A DNA stretch of 33,762 bases, taken from positions 1-33,762 of IMG/VR virus record IMGVR_UViG_3300037493_001486; one strand, given 5' to 3'. The stretch is from a virus. Each line of letters opens with the position of its first letter. Positions within the stretch are counted from its first letter, which is position 1. Made by a program: the position numbers and the translations under genes. A model generated the notes under the pieces. The model searched no databases, was not told the DNA's origin, and saw nothing but the letters and a program-made list of their open reading frames with translations. Below, piece after piece: positions 10,986 to 25,178 of this stretch.

Positions 10986-11633
10986 TTATTTTGCACTCAC
11001 TCCCAAACCGAATCCAATGATTGCACCGACTCCCAACTTGAAGGCCGTTGTTTGGTGCCACTTCTTCTCTTCCTTGATGTAGATATTCTGCATGCCGGTG
11101 ATCTGCACATTGGGATTATCGACTCTCATGCGCACTACTGTATCGCTTTTCTTCAGTAATCGGTTAACGAAGCCAGTGCGCATGGTATCACCAACAGCAT
11201 AGGTGAACTTGGCAGGGATCACAAGCGAATCAATCTGCAACCACCCAAGGCGATTGATCATGCCGCCTATTGTGTACCACTCGGTCTCTTTAAGGAATGG
11301 CTTGCCTGTTCGAATCATTGGATAGTTGTTGACCATCACTGTGTCACCGACTTTGATTTGCGTTTTAATGACGGTCCTCGTTTCAATCTTCACCACCTCC
11401 AATGCGTTCTTTACTTTGACTTCTAACTCGGCAACTTGCTGTGCTTGTTTGGCTGCATCAGATGAGCTCTGTGCGATTACTTTGCGCTGTGAGGCGATAA
11501 CTATCGAGTCCTCATATATCGTGTGCTTAAGGCGATAATCGTTGCTCACGTTTTCGCCGCAAGATTTAAGCAGCAAAAATACAAGTACAATGATTGCAAT
11601 AAGATAAATCGTTTCAGTTCGTACAGATGCCAT
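10986..11633 (-). CDS. Spanin-like membrane protein, 215 aa
   Basis: This protein has an N-terminal hydrophobic segment (residues 9-22) ending in LLKSCGEN, where C25 could be a lipoprotein cysteine although the lipobox is weak. A helical, probably coiled-coil part follows at about 40-90, then a beta-rich domain and a C-terminal glycine-rich hydrophobic stretch (AFKLGVGAIIGFGLG, 197-211). It lies downstream of lysozyme and holin-like genes, where the spanin is expected. N-terminal lipid anchor plus C-terminal membrane segment would be a one-protein (u-spanin) design; an i-spanin-like protein is the alternative. Confidence 0.65.
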   Translation of the reverse strand: MASVRTETIYLIAIIVLVFLLLKSCGENVSNDYRLKHTIYEDSIVIASQRKVIAQSSSDAAKQAQQVAELEVKVKNALEVVKIETRTVIKTQIKVGDTVMVNNYPMIRTGKPFLKETEWYTIGGMINRLGWLQIDSLVIPAKFTYAVGDTMRTGFVNRLLKKSDTVVRMRVDNPNVQITGMQNIYIKEEKKWHQTTAFKLGVGAIIGFGLGVSAK

Positions 11634-11796
11634 CTTGAATGAGTTTTATAAGTTGTTTGGAAGATTCCCAAAATAATCTTTTATCCTTGAGCTCCGCTTG
11701 CAGTATTTGCAGTGCCACGCATACAGGCATACCACGTTCAATCACATACCAAGCGGCAACCTTAACGAGTCTCTGATCCGCTTCTTGCTCTGTCAT
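11614..11796 (-). CDS. Hypothetical protein, 60 aa
   Basis: Not recognised. This small helical protein begins MTEQEADQRLVKVAAWYVIE and has a central segment with one cysteine (PVCVALQILQAEL). The ATG overlaps the stop of the PAS/DHp gene (ATGA), and its end overlaps the spanin-like gene by 20 bases. It does not contain N, G1 or G2 boxes, so it is not the missing ATPase domain of the kinase fragment upstream. Confidence 0.7.
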   Translation of the reverse strand: MTEQEADQRLVKVAAWYVIERGMPVCVALQILQAELKDKRLFWESSKQLIKLIQDGICTN

Positions 11797-12359
11797 AACT
11801 CGCGAGCTGCTTTCTTGATAAGCACCTTGATTGCTTCATCAAGCTTATTGACTGATGTGTGAATCATCTTAAGAAGATCGCGCTTCTCGTTGTTATTTGC
11901 AACAGGATGCTCGAGCATCAACTGCACAAGCCCTGCGATGTTGGTCAGTGGTTGCCGGATCTCATGGCTAAGCATAAAGCGGAACTCCTCAAGAAGGATC
12001 CTTTGCCGCTCATAATCGTGCGAGCTGATTGAAGTCACATCGACAATCTGAATACCTACGAAATGCAATGTCTCGCCAATGGCAAAGCAGTTCCACACGT
12101 TGTATCTGTCGGATGTATTCTTCTGCCGAGTGCGAGCATAGACACGCGATGGCTCAGGCGCATGCTTTCGAGCTGACTCAATTGCTTTGATGAAATCTTC
12201 CTTATCACCTTCGATGCTTATCATGTCGGTGATTGTGGAGGGCTGTATATGGCTAACGTAATTCTTGAACAGCTCATTGTTGGTCACAATTTTGCCGTCT
12301 TGATTCGTCACCACATAGAAGAGGTCAATGGAGTTCTCTAAGATGAATAGCGAAGACAT
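11793..12359 (-). CDS. PAS plus histidine-kinase dimerisation (DHp) protein without ATPase domain
   Basis: This 188-residue protein contains a PAS-like domain (about 1-107: FYVVTNQDGKIVTNNELF, then VWNCFAIGETLHFVGIQIVD). Next comes a typical HisKA helix with the H-box FMLSHEIRQPLTNIAGLV, phospho-acceptor H132. The second helix of the hairpin follows (DLLKMIHTSVNKLDEAIKVL) and the protein stops there. No N, G1 or G2 box is present here or in the next genes, and there is no membrane segment. It may be phosphorylated by, or pair with, a host kinase. The start at 12359 is chosen over 12413 to limit overlap with the upstream gene. It lies inside the lysis cassette. Confidence 0.85.
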   Translation of the reverse strand: MSSLFILENSIDLFYVVTNQDGKIVTNNELFKNYVSHIQPSTITDMISIEGDKEDFIKAIESARKHAPEPSRVYARTRQKNTSDRYNVWNCFAIGETLHFVGIQIVDVTSISSHDYERQRILLEEFRFMLSHEIRQPLTNIAGLVQLMLEHPVANNNEKRDLLKMIHTSVNKLDEAIKVLIKKAAREL

Positions 12360-12820
12360 TGCTTGAGTTCGCTGTAAAGATTTGACCAAGCACCCATCGA
12401 GCTCCATGCCCATTGTGCTGTTAAGTAAATGGTGAATGTCAACAGCATGCCCATCACTGGAGCATCCATTGTCGGCTTATATTCGGTGAACTCAGTGCGA
12501 GGCTTGATGATAATCTTATGCTCGGGCTTTGGTGCAATCAAGAATGCAGAGTTGCTCGGTTGAATTGTATCGCTTGCGTAGGTGTGTTGCATCGTAGGTC
12601 GCAGTGGCATTGGCTCATCGGCAGCAATCTCGAAAGTTTGCCCCCATTGGTTAGTGCAATATTCTTTGCCAAAGATAGTGAAATTCTGCAAAGGTTGATA
12701 AACCACTTGCGGCTTAATCTCAATTCGTTGGTGATGCGTATGGACCTTGCAGCCAATACCCACCACGCACCCCTCATCGAGGGTTGTGATCACTTGTACT
12801 GAGTCTATTCCGTCATCCAT
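12338..12820 (-). CDS. Lysis-cassette membrane protein, 160 aa
   Basis: Not recognised by family. The N-terminal two thirds is soluble and beta-rich, with two cysteines (EGCVVGIGCKV). A C-terminal hydrophobic segment (about 121-140: PVMGMLLTFTIYLTAQWAWS) is followed by a short tail. The position directly after the holin-like gene (8-base overlap) and before the PAS/DHp gene suggests a part in lysis or membrane association. The ATG at 12820 (MDDGIDSVQV) is preferred to 12877, which lies deep in the holin gene. Confidence 0.6.
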   Translation of the reverse strand: MDDGIDSVQVITTLDEGCVVGIGCKVHTHHQRIEIKPQVVYQPLQNFTIFGKEYCTNQWGQTFEIAADEPMPLRPTMQHTYASDTIQPSNSAFLIAPKPEHKIIIKPRTEFTEYKPTMDAPVMGMLLTFTIYLTAQWAWSSMGAWSNLYSELKQCLRYSS

Positions 12821-13013
12821 TGTCGCTTGCTTTAGGTATGTATCCAGCTGCCACCATTGCGGCCACAATCGCTGCAAGTGTCTCAGTGTTTATCTGCTTG
12901 AAGATAAGCGCAAACACGCTCGACAGAATCACCAAACTGCCAATCGTTGGCCTCCAATACTTGAGTATTATGTCAAGCACTTGCCTTGGTTTGCTGACTC
13001 TTCTTGCCGCCAT
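12813..13013 (-). CDS. Putative holin
   Basis: This 66-residue protein has a basic N-terminus (MAARRVSKPRQ) and two hydrophobic helices (about 22-39 TIGSLVILSSVFALIF and 44-58 TLAAIVAAMVAAGYI), then a short polar tail. Small size, two membrane segments and a position six bases after the lysozyme gene fit a class II-type holin, which makes membrane lesions that release the endolysin. The function is inferred from layout and context. Confidence 0.75.
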   Translation of the reverse strand: MAARRVSKPRQVLDIILKYWRPTIGSLVILSSVFALIFKQINTETLAAIVAAMVAAGYIPKASDNG

Positions 13014-13019
13014 AGTCGA

Positions 13020-13475
13020 CTAAACGATTTTTGTGAAGTATAGTTGCGCTTCTTTCTTTCGCCTTCTTACAAGTCCGGTTGAAACCTCGCCGCCTGCTCT
13101 GTTCCACTTAGCGAACTCAGCTGCAATCTTCGGGTCGTTTGGATTTGCTTTGATGAATCTGAGCAGCTGCGACTTAGCAAGGTTGCCTGCGCCCAGGTTG
13201 AAGCAGAAACTTACAAGCGCATCGAACTGATTCTGATTCACCTTTGTTGCGTTAAGCAATCCAATCACACTGCCCTCGAACTCCTTAAGGTGATCCTTGA
13301 GCAATTGATTCGCCTGGTCTCGAGTGATGGTCTGCCCGAGCTTCACCTTGCTGCCATCTGCGTAGTATGTTGCGCCATATCCAATGGTCGGCACTCCTGC
13401 GCTGCATAGGTAGGAGGTAAGGCGCAAGCCTTCAAACTCCTGTATGAGTCGGATGCCGTTATCAGATAATTTCAT
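13020..13475 (-). CDS. Endolysin, GH24 phage lysozyme
   Basis: This 151-residue muramidase cleaves peptidoglycan at lysis. The N-terminal signature is LIQEFEGLRLTSYLCSAGVP followed by TIGYG. Catalytic residues are E15, C24 (the position held by Asp in T4 lysozyme; Cys is common in P21/RrrD relatives) and T30. The central NQFDALVSFCFNLGAG and C-terminal WNRAGGEVSTGLVRRRKKE are standard for the family. There is no signal peptide or anchor, so export depends on the holin. It overlaps the fibre gene upstream by 14 bases. Confidence 0.95.
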   Translation of the reverse strand: MKLSDNGIRLIQEFEGLRLTSYLCSAGVPTIGYGATYYADGSKVKLGQTITRDQANQLLKDHLKEFEGSVIGLLNATKVNQNQFDALVSFCFNLGAGNLAKSQLLRFIKANPNDPKIAAEFAKWNRAGGEVSTGLVRRRKKEAQLYFTKIV

Positions 13476-18622: not shown

Positions 18623-19666
18623 TTAAGGATTAACGATAGATACACAGTTAACATAGTTAACGCCTGCATACTTATCAGCTGCCTCATAGATATCAGTTGG
18701 CAATGTTGCCACGATACCTGTTGCAGTTAACACTATTGACAAGTTACCACAATCATCCTTCATTGTCAAGTCAACAGGTACACCTGCTGGAGTGAACACC
18801 AAAGTCTTAGAGTAGTTGCTTCCTGCCGTTGGAGTGATGCCAGTGTTCCACTCTGCAAGGTTAAATGACAACCACTGGATTGCTCCTGCTGTTGTTATTA
18901 AAGCAGATGTTTGATCACCTTGTGCAGCAGCTAAACGAGCATCGTAAGCAAAGCCGAAACCGTTTTGCTGAGTGATTGCAAGTAAGTCGATACCATACTG
19001 AGTGCAGCATCCTGCTGCCATCGCGTTAGCGTAACGCTGCATCGCAGCACCACCGAATGCAATTGGAGCACCTGGGTAGTTAGCCATGCGTGTTGCTTGC
19101 TGAATGTCAGCGATAGCAAATGCGTTTGGCTCGTTAGTCCCAACCATTGTTGCAACCTCTAAGCAGTCACCTGTAACTGTGTAGAAACCTTCAACATCAG
19201 TTCCCCAAGCACCGATTGCAGCAACAGCTTGAACAGCTGCGGCAGATGCAACCTTGCGGTCGATAACATCCATTAAGCGCATGATTGACTCCAATACATA
19301 ACGGCTGTTCTCTTGGCAATGACGAGCGATTTCCGCTGCATCGATCAATTGAGAAGCAATGTATGTGTCAGTCGTTTCAACTGTGTAAGTTGTTGTTGAA
19401 TCGCCGTACGTGTTTTCAGAAGTACAAGTTAAGATGCTACCACCTTCTTCAACTTCCGTCTCAGGCAAACGCTGAATCCAACGAGCTTGAACTGTTTTTA
19501 ATTTTCCGTTTCCTGGAGCAACTTCTGTGCGAATTAACTTCGCGTTCTCAGGAGACAATAAGAATTCAAGAAAAGGAAGTTGTTCGCGTTGACCAACCTC
19601 TAAAAATAATTCGCCCAGTGACATTTGCACATTAGGGCATTCTGAAAGTATACGAGAAATAGACAT
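18623..19666 (-). CDS. Putative major capsid protein
   Basis: This 347-residue protein lies directly after a coiled-coil scaffold-like gene and is the only gene in its own transcription unit, with promoter, leader and terminators. That is how the most abundant virion protein is usually expressed. The N-terminus (MSISRILSECPNVQMSLGEL) and body mix alpha and beta; I do not recognise a clear HK97 signature. The helix EIARHCQENSRYVLESIMRL could be a long spine-type helix. Five or more cysteines are present. Assignment rests on position, size and expression signals. Confidence 0.75.
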   Translation of the reverse strand: MSISRILSECPNVQMSLGELFLEVGQREQLPFLEFLLSPENAKLIRTEVAPGNGKLKTVQARWIQRLPETEVEEGGSILTCTSENTYGDSTTTYTVETTDTYIASQLIDAAEIARHCQENSRYVLESIMRLMDVIDRKVASAAAVQAVAAIGAWGTDVEGFYTVTGDCLEVATMVGTNEPNAFAIADIQQATRMANYPGAPIAFGGAAMQRYANAMAAGCCTQYGIDLLAITQQNGFGFAYDARLAAAQGDQTSALITTAGAIQWLSFNLAEWNTGITPTAGSNYSKTLVFTPAGVPVDLTMKDDCGNLSIVLTATGIVATLPTDIYEAADKYAGVNYVNCVSIVNP

Positions 19667-20811: not shown

Positions 20812-21720
20812 TTATGTAAAACCTTCTGCCTTAGCTCTTGCAATAACACTCGCAGGAACTTTCTGCTTGATCACTGGAACAAGGAAGTGGCGGCAGTTCC
20901 AACCACCAACAAACGTGAAGATGCTGCGTGAGTCAGTGCCATCTATGCGCCCATCCCATGTGCCGTTGCGAATGTCGTTGATGCCTGCGCTGTTCTTGCC
21001 ATCGCCCCATGCTTCAATCTCCTTGCGATGATAGATGGCTCCTTCACGATGCTCGCAGAATGGTCTTGTTGTAGGTATCTCGCCGCCCAGGTATTGGAAG
21101 TATTCAATGCCAAGCTCCTCATTGACCGCCGCTGAATAGCTTCTGTCTGCGATTGCTTGAGCAGTGTTTGCTGTTGTGCGCACGTTGGCAAGTAGCCTGC
21201 CGTCTGTTGTCTCTGTTCCTTCGATCACTCCTTGCAATGCTTTGACTGCTTGGTTAAGTGGAGCACGAGCTGCAACATTTGCCGTCAGCTGCTCAAGGAA
21301 TGGCTGTGTTACATTCTCTTTAAGCCCCGATCCGAAGAACGCATTGATGGCATTCTGCTTGGAGATGGCGAGTAGCTGCCTCTGAACATTGTCAGGTTTA
21401 AATGTACTGTCAATCTTCTTGGCAATGTCATCCGTCAACTGAACACCTTCATCGATGGAGCTCAAGAAGGATTGCACTGCATCTCTATATTCACCGCCTG
21501 CAAGTACCTTGTTGAGCTCATCTGTTATGAGTCCAATTCTGCGGATGTTGTCTTCTGTTTGTTCAATGTTTCCGTTCTCATCGACATCCATCTCGGCAAG
21601 CAAAGGACCGAGCTTGCGCCATGCATCTCTCTGTGCCTTCTCTGCCGCCGTAACAATAGTCTCCGGAACAGTCTCAAGCAGTTTGATTTTTTGCTTAACG
21701 AGTTCATCAAATGATGCCAT
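20812..21720 (-). CDS. Minor head protein, phage Mu gpF/SPP1 gp7-like
   Basis: The protein has 302 residues. The C-terminal domain has the family signature: TRPFCEHREG (218-227), then HRKEIEAWGDG, and the closing VGGWNCRHFLVPV (271-283). The N-terminal half is helical. Such proteins bind the portal, are packed in small number in the procapsid and may reach the cell with the DNA. The gene overlaps the portal gene by 14 bases, as usual for this pair. Confidence 0.88.
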   Translation of the reverse strand: MASFDELVKQKIKLLETVPETIVTAAEKAQRDAWRKLGPLLAEMDVDENGNIEQTEDNIRRIGLITDELNKVLAGGEYRDAVQSFLSSIDEGVQLTDDIAKKIDSTFKPDNVQRQLLAISKQNAINAFFGSGLKENVTQPFLEQLTANVAARAPLNQAVKALQGVIEGTETTDGRLLANVRTTANTAQAIADRSYSAAVNEELGIEYFQYLGGEIPTTRPFCEHREGAIYHRKEIEAWGDGKNSAGINDIRNGTWDGRIDGTDSRSIFTFVGGWNCRHFLVPVIKQKVPASVIARAKAEGFT

Positions 21721-23614
21721 TCAATAGAGTTTGTTGAGCTTGTTGAATCGGATCAAGTGTCACCGCAATCTTCTCAGCTGCCTTCGCTCTAAGCTGTGCA
21801 ATCTGCTCGCTCATTGGTAGGTCAAGGAATCTCTGTGAGCCCTCTGTTGGAATGAAGTCTCTGATGAGCTCCATGATTAACTGCGGCCCAGAGTTATGCA
21901 ATACATCTTGCCACTTCTCAACGCTTCCGCTTGCAAGTCGTGCAAGTATATCAGCGTTGCTCATAAGTAGCAACTCATCAGCGTTGATGATTAAGTCGTA
22001 CACTGCACTGGTCTCTTCATCGGTGTAGTGGATTGCTCTGATGTAATTGTAAACATTCGAGAACGTAATCGATGGCGGCACTCCTGCCTTTACCCCTTCG
22101 CTGATCACCGCAAGGTAATCGCTTGGAGTTGAGATGTCGAAGCTTGTTGGATAAACTAAGTTCACTCCGCCAAACAAATCGCCATAGCGCATCTTTCCAA
22201 TTGTCACCAAACTGAATTCATAAATGGTGAATAGCTGATCGCTGATTGGCTTAATAAAAGCATATAAGCTGCGCAGCTTGTTTAAGCTTCCTGTTGCAGT
22301 CGATGCCTCGCCGATAGTTCCACTTTCATCGCTTGATGGTAAGTGCAGGATACGTCTTGATTTAGCCATCTGCTGCTCAATCTCTGTGCGTAGGAAGTTC
22401 AATGTTTCCATCGGAGGACTGACGAATTTCAAGTACTCGCCGCTGAGTCCGCTGTCACCTTCGCTTAGTGATGTTCTTGGCTTGATAAGTAGCATACCCG
22501 TTGGACTGAAACGGCTCTTTACTCCGCTGCCTGAACAGCTGCCGCATGTGCGATAGCCGCCATTAACTGCATCGAATATCTGACCATCATTACACTTGTT
22601 ACCTTCGCGATCAATGAACTCGCATATCTCACCAAGTGCCACCATAAAAGGGAATGCACTTGTTGCCTTGCTCATCTGCAAGTAGGACTCATCGAGTACA
22701 ACCTGGTCCAATAGTGGAACGGCTGTGATGAATGGCGATTGGAATGCAATCTCATCATTGATCAGTTGAGGTGATCCCATCAGCTTGATGCATGGCACAT
22801 AGCCAAGATTATGCTGAAAGTAAAGCACTGGCTCACCGAATGTCATGTCGCTCTTCTTGCCTGTCTGCTCAATCTTATAGATGGCATCGGAGTCGTAAAG
22901 GAATAACACAATTCCGCTCTCTTCCATCTTGCTGCCGTTCTTCACGTAGCTGTGGTCATCGCTTATCACCAAGTAATACTCACCGAACTTCTGCCCGACA
23001 ATGTTCTTGCAGTTGTAGTATGTCGGCATTGGGCGAAGCAGCTCGTTGCCCATCACCGGCTCCTCAAATTCTTCCTCATCTAAGTATGGAATGTCATCGG
23101 GATAGATGGCGATTATACCATTGGCATCGACAAGCTTCAGCGTTGGAAGCATATTCTTAACGAACATCTCCAGTGATCCGAACTTCTCAATCTCGTTGTT
23201 CACGTATCGCTGAAAAGTCTCCTCACCGAAACGCTCATCCAACTCGGGCGAGTATCTGATGCTCCAGTTCTGATCCGCAAATGCTCTGCTTATCGTTGAT
23301 CGGAAGTCCTCAAACACGCTCAAGGTTGTTGCCTTGTAGTTCGCCTTGATGTACATCGCTTGCGCATCCGTTTGATTGGGAGCACGCACCGAAAGCAAGT
23401 GCTCAGGATAAACATCGGAGCGGCTATGCGGCAAGATGCTGTCATACATCTTGGCGGCATAATTGTAACCGCTCCAATATTCTGGATACTGGCTCGATGC
23501 TCGCTGCTTAGTGATAGGATTCAAGGGAGTAGATTGTGTCATCTGCTCCCAACCCTTTCGCTTCGCTGCAAATCGGTTTACAATCTTGTTAATATCCTCA
23601 GAGCTTAGTGCCAT
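21707..23614 (-). CDS. Portal protein
   Basis: This 635-residue protein forms the dodecameric DNA gate of the head. Position before the Mu gpF-like gene, size and the order of segments (YWSGYNYAAKMYDSILPHSR near the N-terminus, QMAKSRRILHLP in the crown/stem region, then a helical C-terminus) support this. A cysteine group in the middle (C331, C341, TCGSCSGSG with C357 and C360) looks like a zinc knuckle and is found in many Bacteroidota phage portals. There is a 54-base gap before it, with no promoter seen. Confidence 0.9.
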   Translation of the reverse strand: MALSSEDINKIVNRFAAKRKGWEQMTQSTPLNPITKQRASSQYPEYWSGYNYAAKMYDSILPHSRSDVYPEHLLSVRAPNQTDAQAMYIKANYKATTLSVFEDFRSTISRAFADQNWSIRYSPELDERFGEETFQRYVNNEIEKFGSLEMFVKNMLPTLKLVDANGIIAIYPDDIPYLDEEEFEEPVMGNELLRPMPTYYNCKNIVGQKFGEYYLVISDDHSYVKNGSKMEESGIVLFLYDSDAIYKIEQTGKKSDMTFGEPVLYFQHNLGYVPCIKLMGSPQLINDEIAFQSPFITAVPLLDQVVLDESYLQMSKATSAFPFMVALGEICEFIDREGNKCNDGQIFDAVNGGYRTCGSCSGSGVKSRFSPTGMLLIKPRTSLSEGDSGLSGEYLKFVSPPMETLNFLRTEIEQQMAKSRRILHLPSSDESGTIGEASTATGSLNKLRSLYAFIKPISDQLFTIYEFSLVTIGKMRYGDLFGGVNLVYPTSFDISTPSDYLAVISEGVKAGVPPSITFSNVYNYIRAIHYTDEETSAVYDLIINADELLLMSNADILARLASGSVEKWQDVLHNSGPQLIMELIRDFIPTEGSQRFLDLPMSEQIAQLRAKAAEKIAVTLDPIQQAQQTLLNGII

Positions 23615-23668: not shown

Positions 23669-24244
23669 TCATCGGTGTAGTATTGAGAGCCCTCTTCCTT
23701 CAGTGGTGTTGAGCGTGACATTGTTATAATTGAAACTTGATGCGTATTCGACAAGTTTGCGAGGGCCATCTAAGTGGATGGTGTCATGATAAACAATCAC
23801 GCCACCTCTTGCAACAAGTCCTTCAACAAGCTTAAACTCGGGAAGTATGGCAGCCCATGAGTGGTCCGCATCCACGAAGATAAGGTCAAAGTGATTTCTT
23901 GGAAGCTTGCCAAGTTCATCTAATGAATTGCCCAGTATGAAGTCAATCGACTTGCCGCCTGTGCTCATTGTTGCCTTGGTTAAATCTGTTCGATAGTCAT
24001 TGATGTCGATTCCAACATACTGCCCACCCTTTGGCAGAGCATTGATAAGATGCTGAGATGTTTCGCCCTCGAATACTCCAATCTCGAGCACCGTCATGTA
24101 CTTAGCCATCTTGATCATTGAAGCCATGAATAGGCCGCACTCATTCTCGGAGTTCCAATCGTGGCGAGCAACCTCGGTGAATGTTGCTGTTGTCACAATC
24201 TCTTTCTTTGGTCTTCCTCTTTTCTTAACGCTTTCCATCTGCAT
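23669..24244 (-). CDS. Class I SAM-dependent methyltransferase (Methyltransf_24-like)
   Basis: This 191-residue protein has the Rossmann pattern: motif I VLEIGVFEG (52-60), acidic end of strand 2 GIDIN (D80), and LIFVDADHSW (121-130). The last is typical of the Methyltransf_24 group that acts on sugars or small molecules rather than on DNA. The N-terminus carries KKRGRPKKE, an AT-hook-like basic motif. It overlaps the glycosyltransferase gene by 14-20 bases, depending on whether M1 or M3 is used. A joint role in glycan decoration is inferred. Confidence 0.85.
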   Translation of the reverse strand: MQMESVKKRGRPKKEIVTTATFTEVARHDWNSENECGLFMASMIKMAKYMTVLEIGVFEGETSQHLINALPKGGQYVGIDINDYRTDLTKATMSTGGKSIDFILGNSLDELGKLPRNHFDLIFVDADHSWAAILPEFKLVEGLVARGGVIVYHDTIHLDGPRKLVEYASSFNYNNVTLNTTEGRGLSILHR

Positions 24245-25178
24245 ATTTGTTTTGTGCTATTCTGCTTATAAGGTAGATATGTCTTTTGCCAATTGCCTTG
24301 AAGTCATTTGCTAACATCCTGTCAAGCCAATCGATGTAGAATCTTGGAGTGAATCCTGCGCCGCCATAGTAGCTTTGCAGATAATAGTTTTCGGTTATCT
24401 CTTGGTAACTCAATCCCCTGGTCATTGCGAAGTGGATCATGCCGCCTTCACTCATACCAATCTTTTCGTAGTGTTTCAGCGCAGGATCAATGCCATGAAT
24501 CGCAAGAGCGACATTCATGTACAACTCATCAGGCTGTCCACCGCCCCACTTCATGCGGAGGTCTTTAATCTCAATCGGATTGTTGAAGTACAAGTCTTTC
24601 GCTGTGCGATAGATTGCTTCTGCTTGTGAGCCCTTCACTATCCACTGCATCGAGCTGTTGATGGCAGGCATCACATACGACTCAAGCAAGTTGAAGTGCG
24701 CCCACATCTTATCCGCCCATGCCCACTGCATCTCTTTAAAGTCTCTGCCCTTGTCGATGGTGTGATACCCAACGCAATGGCTTATGTAATCTTTGCCGGA
24801 TTGAGCAAGCTCGTCAATCATCGGCTGAATGTCTTTAAGTGCAACAGCATCCACATCAAGGTAGAGGTTGCGCTCGTATGGCAAGTACTTGTATAAATTC
24901 ACTTTTACCTTGCCTGGATCAAGCTTCTTATTTGTGTAGATGTCTGCCGGATTGATATCGCCAAAGTGCTCAACATATTTCACAATGTCGGGGCAGTAGG
25001 AAATAGCCTTAAGCACATCATCAAAAAACACCGATATACTCACGCTTGGATTGTGCTTCTTAATGCTGAATGCAAGATTGAAAGCAGCCCAATAATATTG
25101 CGGCTTGCCGAATGCAAGAAGCACCACCCCTGTTGAAGGAGTGATGCTCTGAGTGGTAGATGTCAATTCCTCAGTCAT
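24225..25178 (-). CDS. Glycosyltransferase, GT-A fold
   Basis: This 317-residue enzyme has a GT-A layout: a nucleotide-binding start (GVVLLAFGKPQYYWAAFNLA), the metal-binding DxD in YLDVDAV (D108, D110), and the GGGQPDELYM acceptor/catalytic segment (212-221). It resembles GT8-type or related phage transferases. Its position between tail and head genes and beside a methyltransferase suggests modification of virion proteins or of a host surface glycan. The ATG overlaps the previous stop by one base (TAATG). The sugar and target are unknown. Confidence 0.85.
   Translation of the reverse strand: MTEELTSTTQSITPSTGVVLLAFGKPQYYWAAFNLAFSIKKHNPSVSISVFFDDVLKAISYCPDIVKYVEHFGDINPADIYTNKKLDPGKVKVNLYKYLPYERNLYLDVDAVALKDIQPMIDELAQSGKDYISHCVGYHTIDKGRDFKEMQWAWADKMWAHFNLLESYVMPAINSSMQWIVKGSQAEAIYRTAKDLYFNNPIEIKDLRMKWGGGQPDELYMNVALAIHGIDPALKHYEKIGMSEGGMIHFAMTRGLSYQEITENYYLQSYYGGAGFTPRFYIDWLDRMLANDFKAIGKRHIYLISRIAQNKYADGKR

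What the first reader, a model, noticed from the sequence alone, without database searches (positions are those of the whole stretch)
11793..12359. Phage-encoded PAS-DHp kinase fragment inside the lysis cassette
The protein has a PAS-like domain and a clear H-box (FMLSHEIRQPLTNI, H132) but ends after the DHp hairpin, and no neighbouring frame supplies N, G1 or G2 boxes. It sits between holin-like and spanin-like genes and has no membrane segment. Known biology: DHp domains pair with and are phosphorylated by kinase ATPase domains. Inference: it could form mixed dimers with a host kinase, drain phosphate, or sense a cell state to time lysis.
Basis: partly seen in the sequence, partly recalled or inferred. 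Interest (0 to 1): 0.75.

Follow-up and report, generated by a model that had tools for sequence, protein, structure and literature searches.

The report
ATPase-less kinase core in phage lysis genes
A large group of uncultured phages, probably infecting Bacteroidota, keeps a small sensor-plus-phosphate-acceptor protein (half of a bacterial histidine kinase, without the ATP-burning half) in the middle of its lysis genes, which suggests that the phage plugs into a signalling kinase of its host.

Summary
On the minus strand, 12359-11793 encodes a 188-aa protein: a PAS fold followed by a HisKA DHp hairpin with His132. The frame ends there, with no ATPase domain. It is not decay. 93 distinct proteins from IMG/VR, in two clades about 61-64% identical, are all full length (186 or 188 aa). 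All keep H132, E133, R135, Q136 and P137, and all stop at the same point; dN/dS is about 0.09. Twelve long records of these phages contain exactly one HisKA match each, and no HATPase_c or response-regulator domain in six frames. The gene lies in endolysin / holin-like / C-terminally hydrophobic protein / PAS-DHp / 60-aa protein / spanin-like, with constant 22-nt and 4-nt overlaps. Wherever neighbours were used as probes and the contig reached far enough, it was present. Best explanation (inferred, about 0.45): a phospho-acceptor that uses a host kinase's ATPase domain in trans, in mixed dimers or by transient docking, and so diverts a host two-component pathway late in infection. E133 (needed only for phosphorylation in HisKA proteins) is invariant, while the phosphatase T/N position is invariantly Gln. 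HisKA proteins without HATPase are known in bacteria. A conserved phage lysis-cluster family of them was not found in the literature searched. Partner, signal and lysis role are untested.

The parts
11793..12359 (-). PAS-DHp protein, 188 aa plus stop; start ATG at 12359, stop codon 11793-11795
   Evidence: conserved start, length and stop in 93 distinct proteins
12045..12329 (-). PAS-like domain, residues 11-105
   Evidence: AF2 model, PAS superpositions Z ~11, PhoR/PnpS model alignment
11796..12023 (-). DHp (HisKA) two-helix hairpin, residues 113-188
   Evidence: Pfam HisKA 7.7e-10; AF2 helices 113-150 and 156-186
11937..11984 (-). H-box core, residues 126-141 FRFMLSHEIRQPLTNI
   Evidence: F126 R127 F128 L130 S131 H132 E133 R135 Q136 P137 invariant in 93/93
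11964..11966 (-). codon of the phospho-acceptor His132
   Evidence: read; invariant
12338..12820 (-). 160-aa protein with one C-terminal hydrophobic helix; its gene overlaps the PAS-DHp start by 22 nt (including its stop) in every relative checked
   Evidence: no homolog in the phage collection
11614..11796 (-). 60-aa protein (MPVCVAL motif), ATGA 4-nt overlap with the PAS-DHp stop
12813..13013 (-). 66-aa holin-like protein with hydrophobic segment(s)
   Evidence: holin role by position and hydropathy only
13020..13475 (-). endolysin, phage lysozyme family
   Evidence: Pfam PF00959 2.5e-42; PHROG 7 endolysin 2.7e-57
10986..11633 (-). spanin-like 215-aa protein: N-terminal hydrophobic stretch ending in invariant Cys25, coiled middle, short C-terminal hydrophobic tail
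   Evidence: Rz-like PHROG only E 0.28

Best explanation
It is a complete, selected, ATPase-less HisKA protein that works on a host two-component pathway. The PAS domain is a cytosolic input or dimerisation module. The DHp hairpin forms a homodimer, or a mixed dimer with a host HisKA kinase. His132 is phosphorylated in trans by the host kinase's ATPase domain. Because the phage protein has no ATPase of its own and replaces, or competes with, the host kinase's own DHp, it drains or redirects the phosphate flow (a dominant-negative or decoy kinase core) when the late lysis genes are expressed. Shown here: domain make-up, conservation, absence of any phage ATPase or receiver domain, constant place and overlaps in the lysis cluster. 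Inferred: dimer partner, trans-phosphorylation, which host pathway, benefit to the phage.
For: HisKA E 7.7e-10 and PAS plus DHp fold. H132, E133, R135, Q136, P137 invariant in 93 distinct proteins and dN/dS ~0.09. No HATPase_c or receiver domain, and a single HisKA, in 12 long records, with controls ringing. So any phosphate must come from the host. The residue after the histidine is required only for kinase activity, and a T/N at H+4 only for phosphatase activity; N375Q in CrdS abolished phosphatase but kept ~60% kinase activity (PMC3510030). This family keeps E and has Q. HisKA and HATPase parts of EnvZ can work as separate polypeptides (stated in PMC3591291). RetS blocks GacS autophosphorylation by a heteromeric DHp-DHp interface (PMC12148439), and GacS DHp and RetS are among the best sequence matches in the PDB.
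Against: No host genome could be examined, so no partner kinase is identified. Conservation of H-box residues could partly reflect folding of the four-helix bundle. Some natural HisKA kinases of the FixL/DctB type carry H-E-x-N-Q-P (own knowledge), so Q at H+4 does not exclude phosphatase activity. A link to lysis rests on gene position only.
Confidence: 0.45

Rival explanations
1. Phosphatase or reverse phospho-sink: the DHp dimer docks a host response regulator and strips its phosphate, silencing a host stress response during late infection.
For: Isolated DHp domains can be phosphatases: EnvZ without its catalytic domain (Zhu et al. 2000, cited in PMC5727384) and HK853 DHp (PMC5727384). In split CheA3/CheA4 the free ATPase-less half is the main phosphatase (PMC3591291).
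Against: The phosphatase residue T/N at H+4 is Gln in 93/93, and N to Q abolished phosphatase activity in CrdS. E133, needed only for kinase activity, is invariant. At the nine positions matching EnvZ regulator-specificity residues only two are conserved across both clades, although five are conserved within one clade.
Confidence: 0.2
2. Lysis-timing sensor without phosphate chemistry: the PAS domain senses a cell state, the DHp hairpin is a dimer stem, and the protein controls the overlapping membrane protein (12338-12820), the holin or the spanin-like protein.
For: Constant position in the lysis cluster and constant 22-nt and 4-nt gene overlaps in both clades, which suggest coupled translation with the upstream hydrophobic protein. 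PAS is about as conserved as DHp.
Against: A pure dimer stem would not need the invariant H132/E133/R135/Q136/P137. No precedent found for a PAS-DHp lysis regulator.
Confidence: 0.2
3. Decayed fragment of a full-length phage or host kinase.
For: The protein ends at the natural PAS-DHp / ATPase domain boundary.
Against: Same end point in 93 distinct proteins of two clades, dN/dS ~0.09, no HATPase_c remnant in any frame of 12 records.
Confidence: 0.02

Closest known systems
Split histidine kinases / HisKA proteins lacking HATPase (Amin, Porter and Soyer 2013, PMC3591291)
   Same: Phospho-acceptor HisKA domain on a protein without the ATPase domain; such proteins were 3.66% of HisKA proteins in SMART at that time.
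   Different: Those are bacterial, and split pairs have a partner ATPase protein. Here the protein is a phage gene of the lysis cluster and no ATPase partner is encoded.
RetS-GacS type DHp-DHp antagonism (Pseudomonas)
   Same: DHp domain that could pair with another kinase's DHp; weak sequence matches to both.
   Different: RetS is a large membrane hybrid kinase with its own HATPase-type domain (own knowledge). The phage protein has PAS plus DHp only and no membrane segment.
PhoR / PnpS type PAS-HisKA kinases
   Same: Best NCBIfam matches, E 5.7e-9 (PnpS) and 1.3e-8 (PhoR), across PAS plus DHp.
   Different: About 35 bits against cut-offs of 334-400; no membrane part, no ATPase. Not a member.
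Spo0B / ChpT histidine phosphotransferases (own knowledge)
   Same: Dimeric DHp-like phospho-carriers that depend on another kinase.
   Different: They keep a degenerate ATPase-like C-terminal domain and lack a PAS domain. The phage protein ends at the hairpin.

Membership tests
HisKA-family (DHp) proteins | HisKA profile match over the curated cut-off with phospho-acceptor His | tested here: met
   39.1 bits vs 26.9 in the window protein; over cut-off in 11 of 12 records, clade-2 L257 slightly under; H132 93/93
Orthodox sensor histidine kinase | HATPase_c (CA) domain in the same protein or locus | tested here: not met
   none in six frames of 12 records, controls positive
Orthodox two-component system | response regulator receiver domain encoded with it | tested here: not met
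   no Response_reg in 12 records
PAS domain | PAS fold | tested here: met
   predicted model only: Z ~11 to ARNT PAS-B, LOV/FixL hits; no Pfam PAS hit
Bifunctional HisKA phosphatase motif H-E/D-x-x-T/N | T or N at H+4 | tested here: not met
   Gln in 93/93; motif from PMC3510030
Split histidine kinase | separate ATPase protein that phosphorylates it in trans | not testable with these tools
   none in the phage; host unknown
PhoR/PnpS kinases | NCBIfam equivalog cut-off | tested here: not met
   35.5 vs 400 bits, 34.2 vs 334 bits

The most novel reading that the evidence does not exclude
These phages carry a decoy of one specific host kinase (for example a PhoR/PnpS-like PAS-DHp core) that captures the host's phosphate signal and, through the overlapping membrane protein of the lysis cluster, couples the timing of lysis to the phosphorylation state of a host two-component pathway.
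Probability: 0.12. Interest if true: 0.88.

Novelty: new variant of a known kind. Interest (0 to 1): 0.62.

Why it matters
It shows that a phage group keeps half of a histidine kinase as an apparently core gene next to its lysis genes. If it engages host kinases, phages manipulate two-component signalling by a protein-protein route, and a single-residue test (H132) can decide it. It would also be a natural single-gene tool for silencing or rerouting a bacterial kinase.

Tried and rejected
Chance ORF or mis-framed gene: rejected (conserved start, length, stop, dN/dS). Decay: rejected. Hidden ATPase domain in neighbours: none by profile; the 160-aa neighbour folds poorly (pLDDT 52) with only a C-terminal helix, so a divergent domain there is not strictly excluded. 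Known defence or anti-defence proteins: no PADLOC match for PAS-DHp. Cellular relatives: two genome-contig scans found none, but these need short exact patterns and reach close relatives only. Plasmid tblastn gave only generic PAS kinases, best E 7e-3. Bacteroidota genomes could not be drawn as relatives because the record is viral. Isolate phages: only generic HisKA matches to PAS-DHp at E 0.9, and no homolog of capsid, portal, spanin-like or the 160-aa protein. Promoter and terminator scans: no better than shuffles. Literature: no phage DHp-only protein found, in an open-access library only. VIA-align rows are filled by the PAS domain, so they do not test the DHp part.

Full report
Observation. 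The window is itself a whole IMG/VR virus record of 33,762 bases, with all evident genes on the minus strand. The reported interval, read on the minus strand, is one open frame of 188 codons from ATG 12359 to the stop at 11793-11795. Pfam gives one family, HisKA, at 7.7e-10, above its curated cut-off. A six-frame search finds exactly one HisKA match in the record. The AlphaFold2 model from an 18-sequence alignment has mean pLDDT 70. It shows PAS-like strands and helices, then helix 113-150 containing H132 and helix 156-186, after which the protein ends. The PAS part superposes on solved PAS domains with Z about 11. Foldseek's best whole-model matches are LOV-histidine kinases. NCBIfam kinase models PnpS and PhoR align across PAS plus DHp and no further, at scores far below family cut-offs.

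Relatives. The 80 closest places in IMG/VR are 79-89% identical, all exactly 188 aa with the same H-box. Further scans reached a second clade at about 61-64% identity, 186 aa, with a two-residue deletion in the turn of the hairpin. Together there are 109 distinct gene sequences and 93 distinct proteins. H132, E133, R135, Q136 and P137 are invariant in all 93, and every protein stops just after helix 2. Mean dN over mean dS is about 0.09 in both clades, many synonymous distances being near saturation. A degenerate pattern for the H-box, scanned over all IMG/VR, hit 107 stretches; all loci loaded from it belong to this family. No isolate phage encodes a convincing relative.

No kinase partner in the phage. 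HATPase_c and Response_reg were sought in six frames of 12 records of 33.8-37.5 kb from both clades. None matched, while all 14 control genomes rang. HisKA matched once per record. These records may be incomplete at their ends.

Place. In clade 1 the order endolysin, holin-like 66-aa protein, 160-aa protein, PAS-DHp, 60-aa protein, spanin-like protein is the same in the relatives shown, with nearly fixed spacing (its output was cut in the middle). In clade 2 the four cassettes read in full show the same order. The 160-aa gene ends 22 nt inside the PAS-DHp gene in all 20 relatives listed, from both clades. The PAS-DHp stop overlaps the next start by 4 nt. When the spanin-like gene or a replication-side gene was used as probe, 64 of 66 loci carried PAS-DHp; the other two begin inside the probe gene at the edge of a contig. 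So it behaves as a core gene of this phage group. The endolysin is certain. The holin role is by hydropathy and position. The spanin role rests on an invariant cysteine after the N-terminal hydrophobic stretch and a C-terminal hydrophobic tail, with no significant spanin profile match.

Host. A Bacteroidota host is inferred from the BT4734-like/VapE primase, the near absence of Shine-Dalgarno-like motifs upstream of starts (3 of 33 by a crude count), and terminase similarity that includes Flavobacterium, Polaribacter and Bacteroides phages among many others. It is not proven.

Mechanism. Published work on HisKA proteins shows that the acidic residue after the histidine is needed for phosphorylation and not for phosphatase activity, and that the T/N at H+4 is needed for phosphatase and not for kinase activity. 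A Gln there in CrdS removed phosphatase but left about 60% of kinase activity (PMC3510030). This family keeps E and has Q at H+4 in every member. That pattern is expected of a domain that must still be phosphorylated by an ATPase domain, which here can only come from the host. Separately expressed EnvZ domains are active (PMC3591291). DHp-DHp mixed bundles between different kinases are established for RetS-GacS (PMC12148439). Across clades the H-box and the upper half of the hairpin are conserved (73% and 50% of sites), and the lower half, where regulators dock, is not (12-20%). Within clade 1, though, several of these sites are constant, so this is weak evidence against a fixed regulator partner. 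I therefore put about 0.45 on a host-kinase-dependent phospho-acceptor or mixed-dimer model, 0.2 on a phosphatase or sink acting on a host regulator, and 0.2 on a lysis-timing role without phosphate. The rest is unassigned. Natural kinases of the FixL type with Gln at H+4 (own knowledge) are the main caveat.

Known versus new. HisKA proteins without HATPase were 3.66% of HisKA proteins in one survey (PMC3591291), so the architecture is known in principle. A conserved family of them as a core gene in phage lysis clusters was not found in the open literature searched. Hence 'new variant of a known kind'.

Noticed in passing
window 12338-12820 (-): 160-aa protein, low-confidence N part and one C-terminal hydrophobic helix; invariant C18, G21, G23, C24, H27, T28, H29 cluster (GCKVHTHH) in both clades; no known family or isolate-phage homolog.
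   Followed up: partly
window 10986-11633 (-): Spanin-like protein with invariant Cys25 at the end of the N-terminal hydrophobic stretch and a glycine-rich C-terminal hydrophobic tail, the layout of a one-protein (u-) spanin; weak BamJ and DUF6549 matches only.
   Followed up: partly
window 11614-11796 (-): 60-aa protein of unknown function with invariant MPVCVAL segment, overlapping the genes on both sides.
   Followed up: partly
window 18623-19666 and 21707-23614 (-): Probable major capsid and portal proteins (roles inferred from gene order) have no match among 50,697 phage records: a phage group without cultured representative.
   Followed up: partly
window 23669-25178 (-): Methyltransferase gene followed upstream by a glycosyltransferase-like gene between portal and tail genes; possible virion or surface modification.
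   Followed up: no
L165 (contig IMGVR_UViG_3300043465_000197): A 36-kb relative whose PAS-DHp gene is cut at the edge of the stored stretch; about 77% identical, may be an intermediate lineage within clade 1.
   Followed up: no
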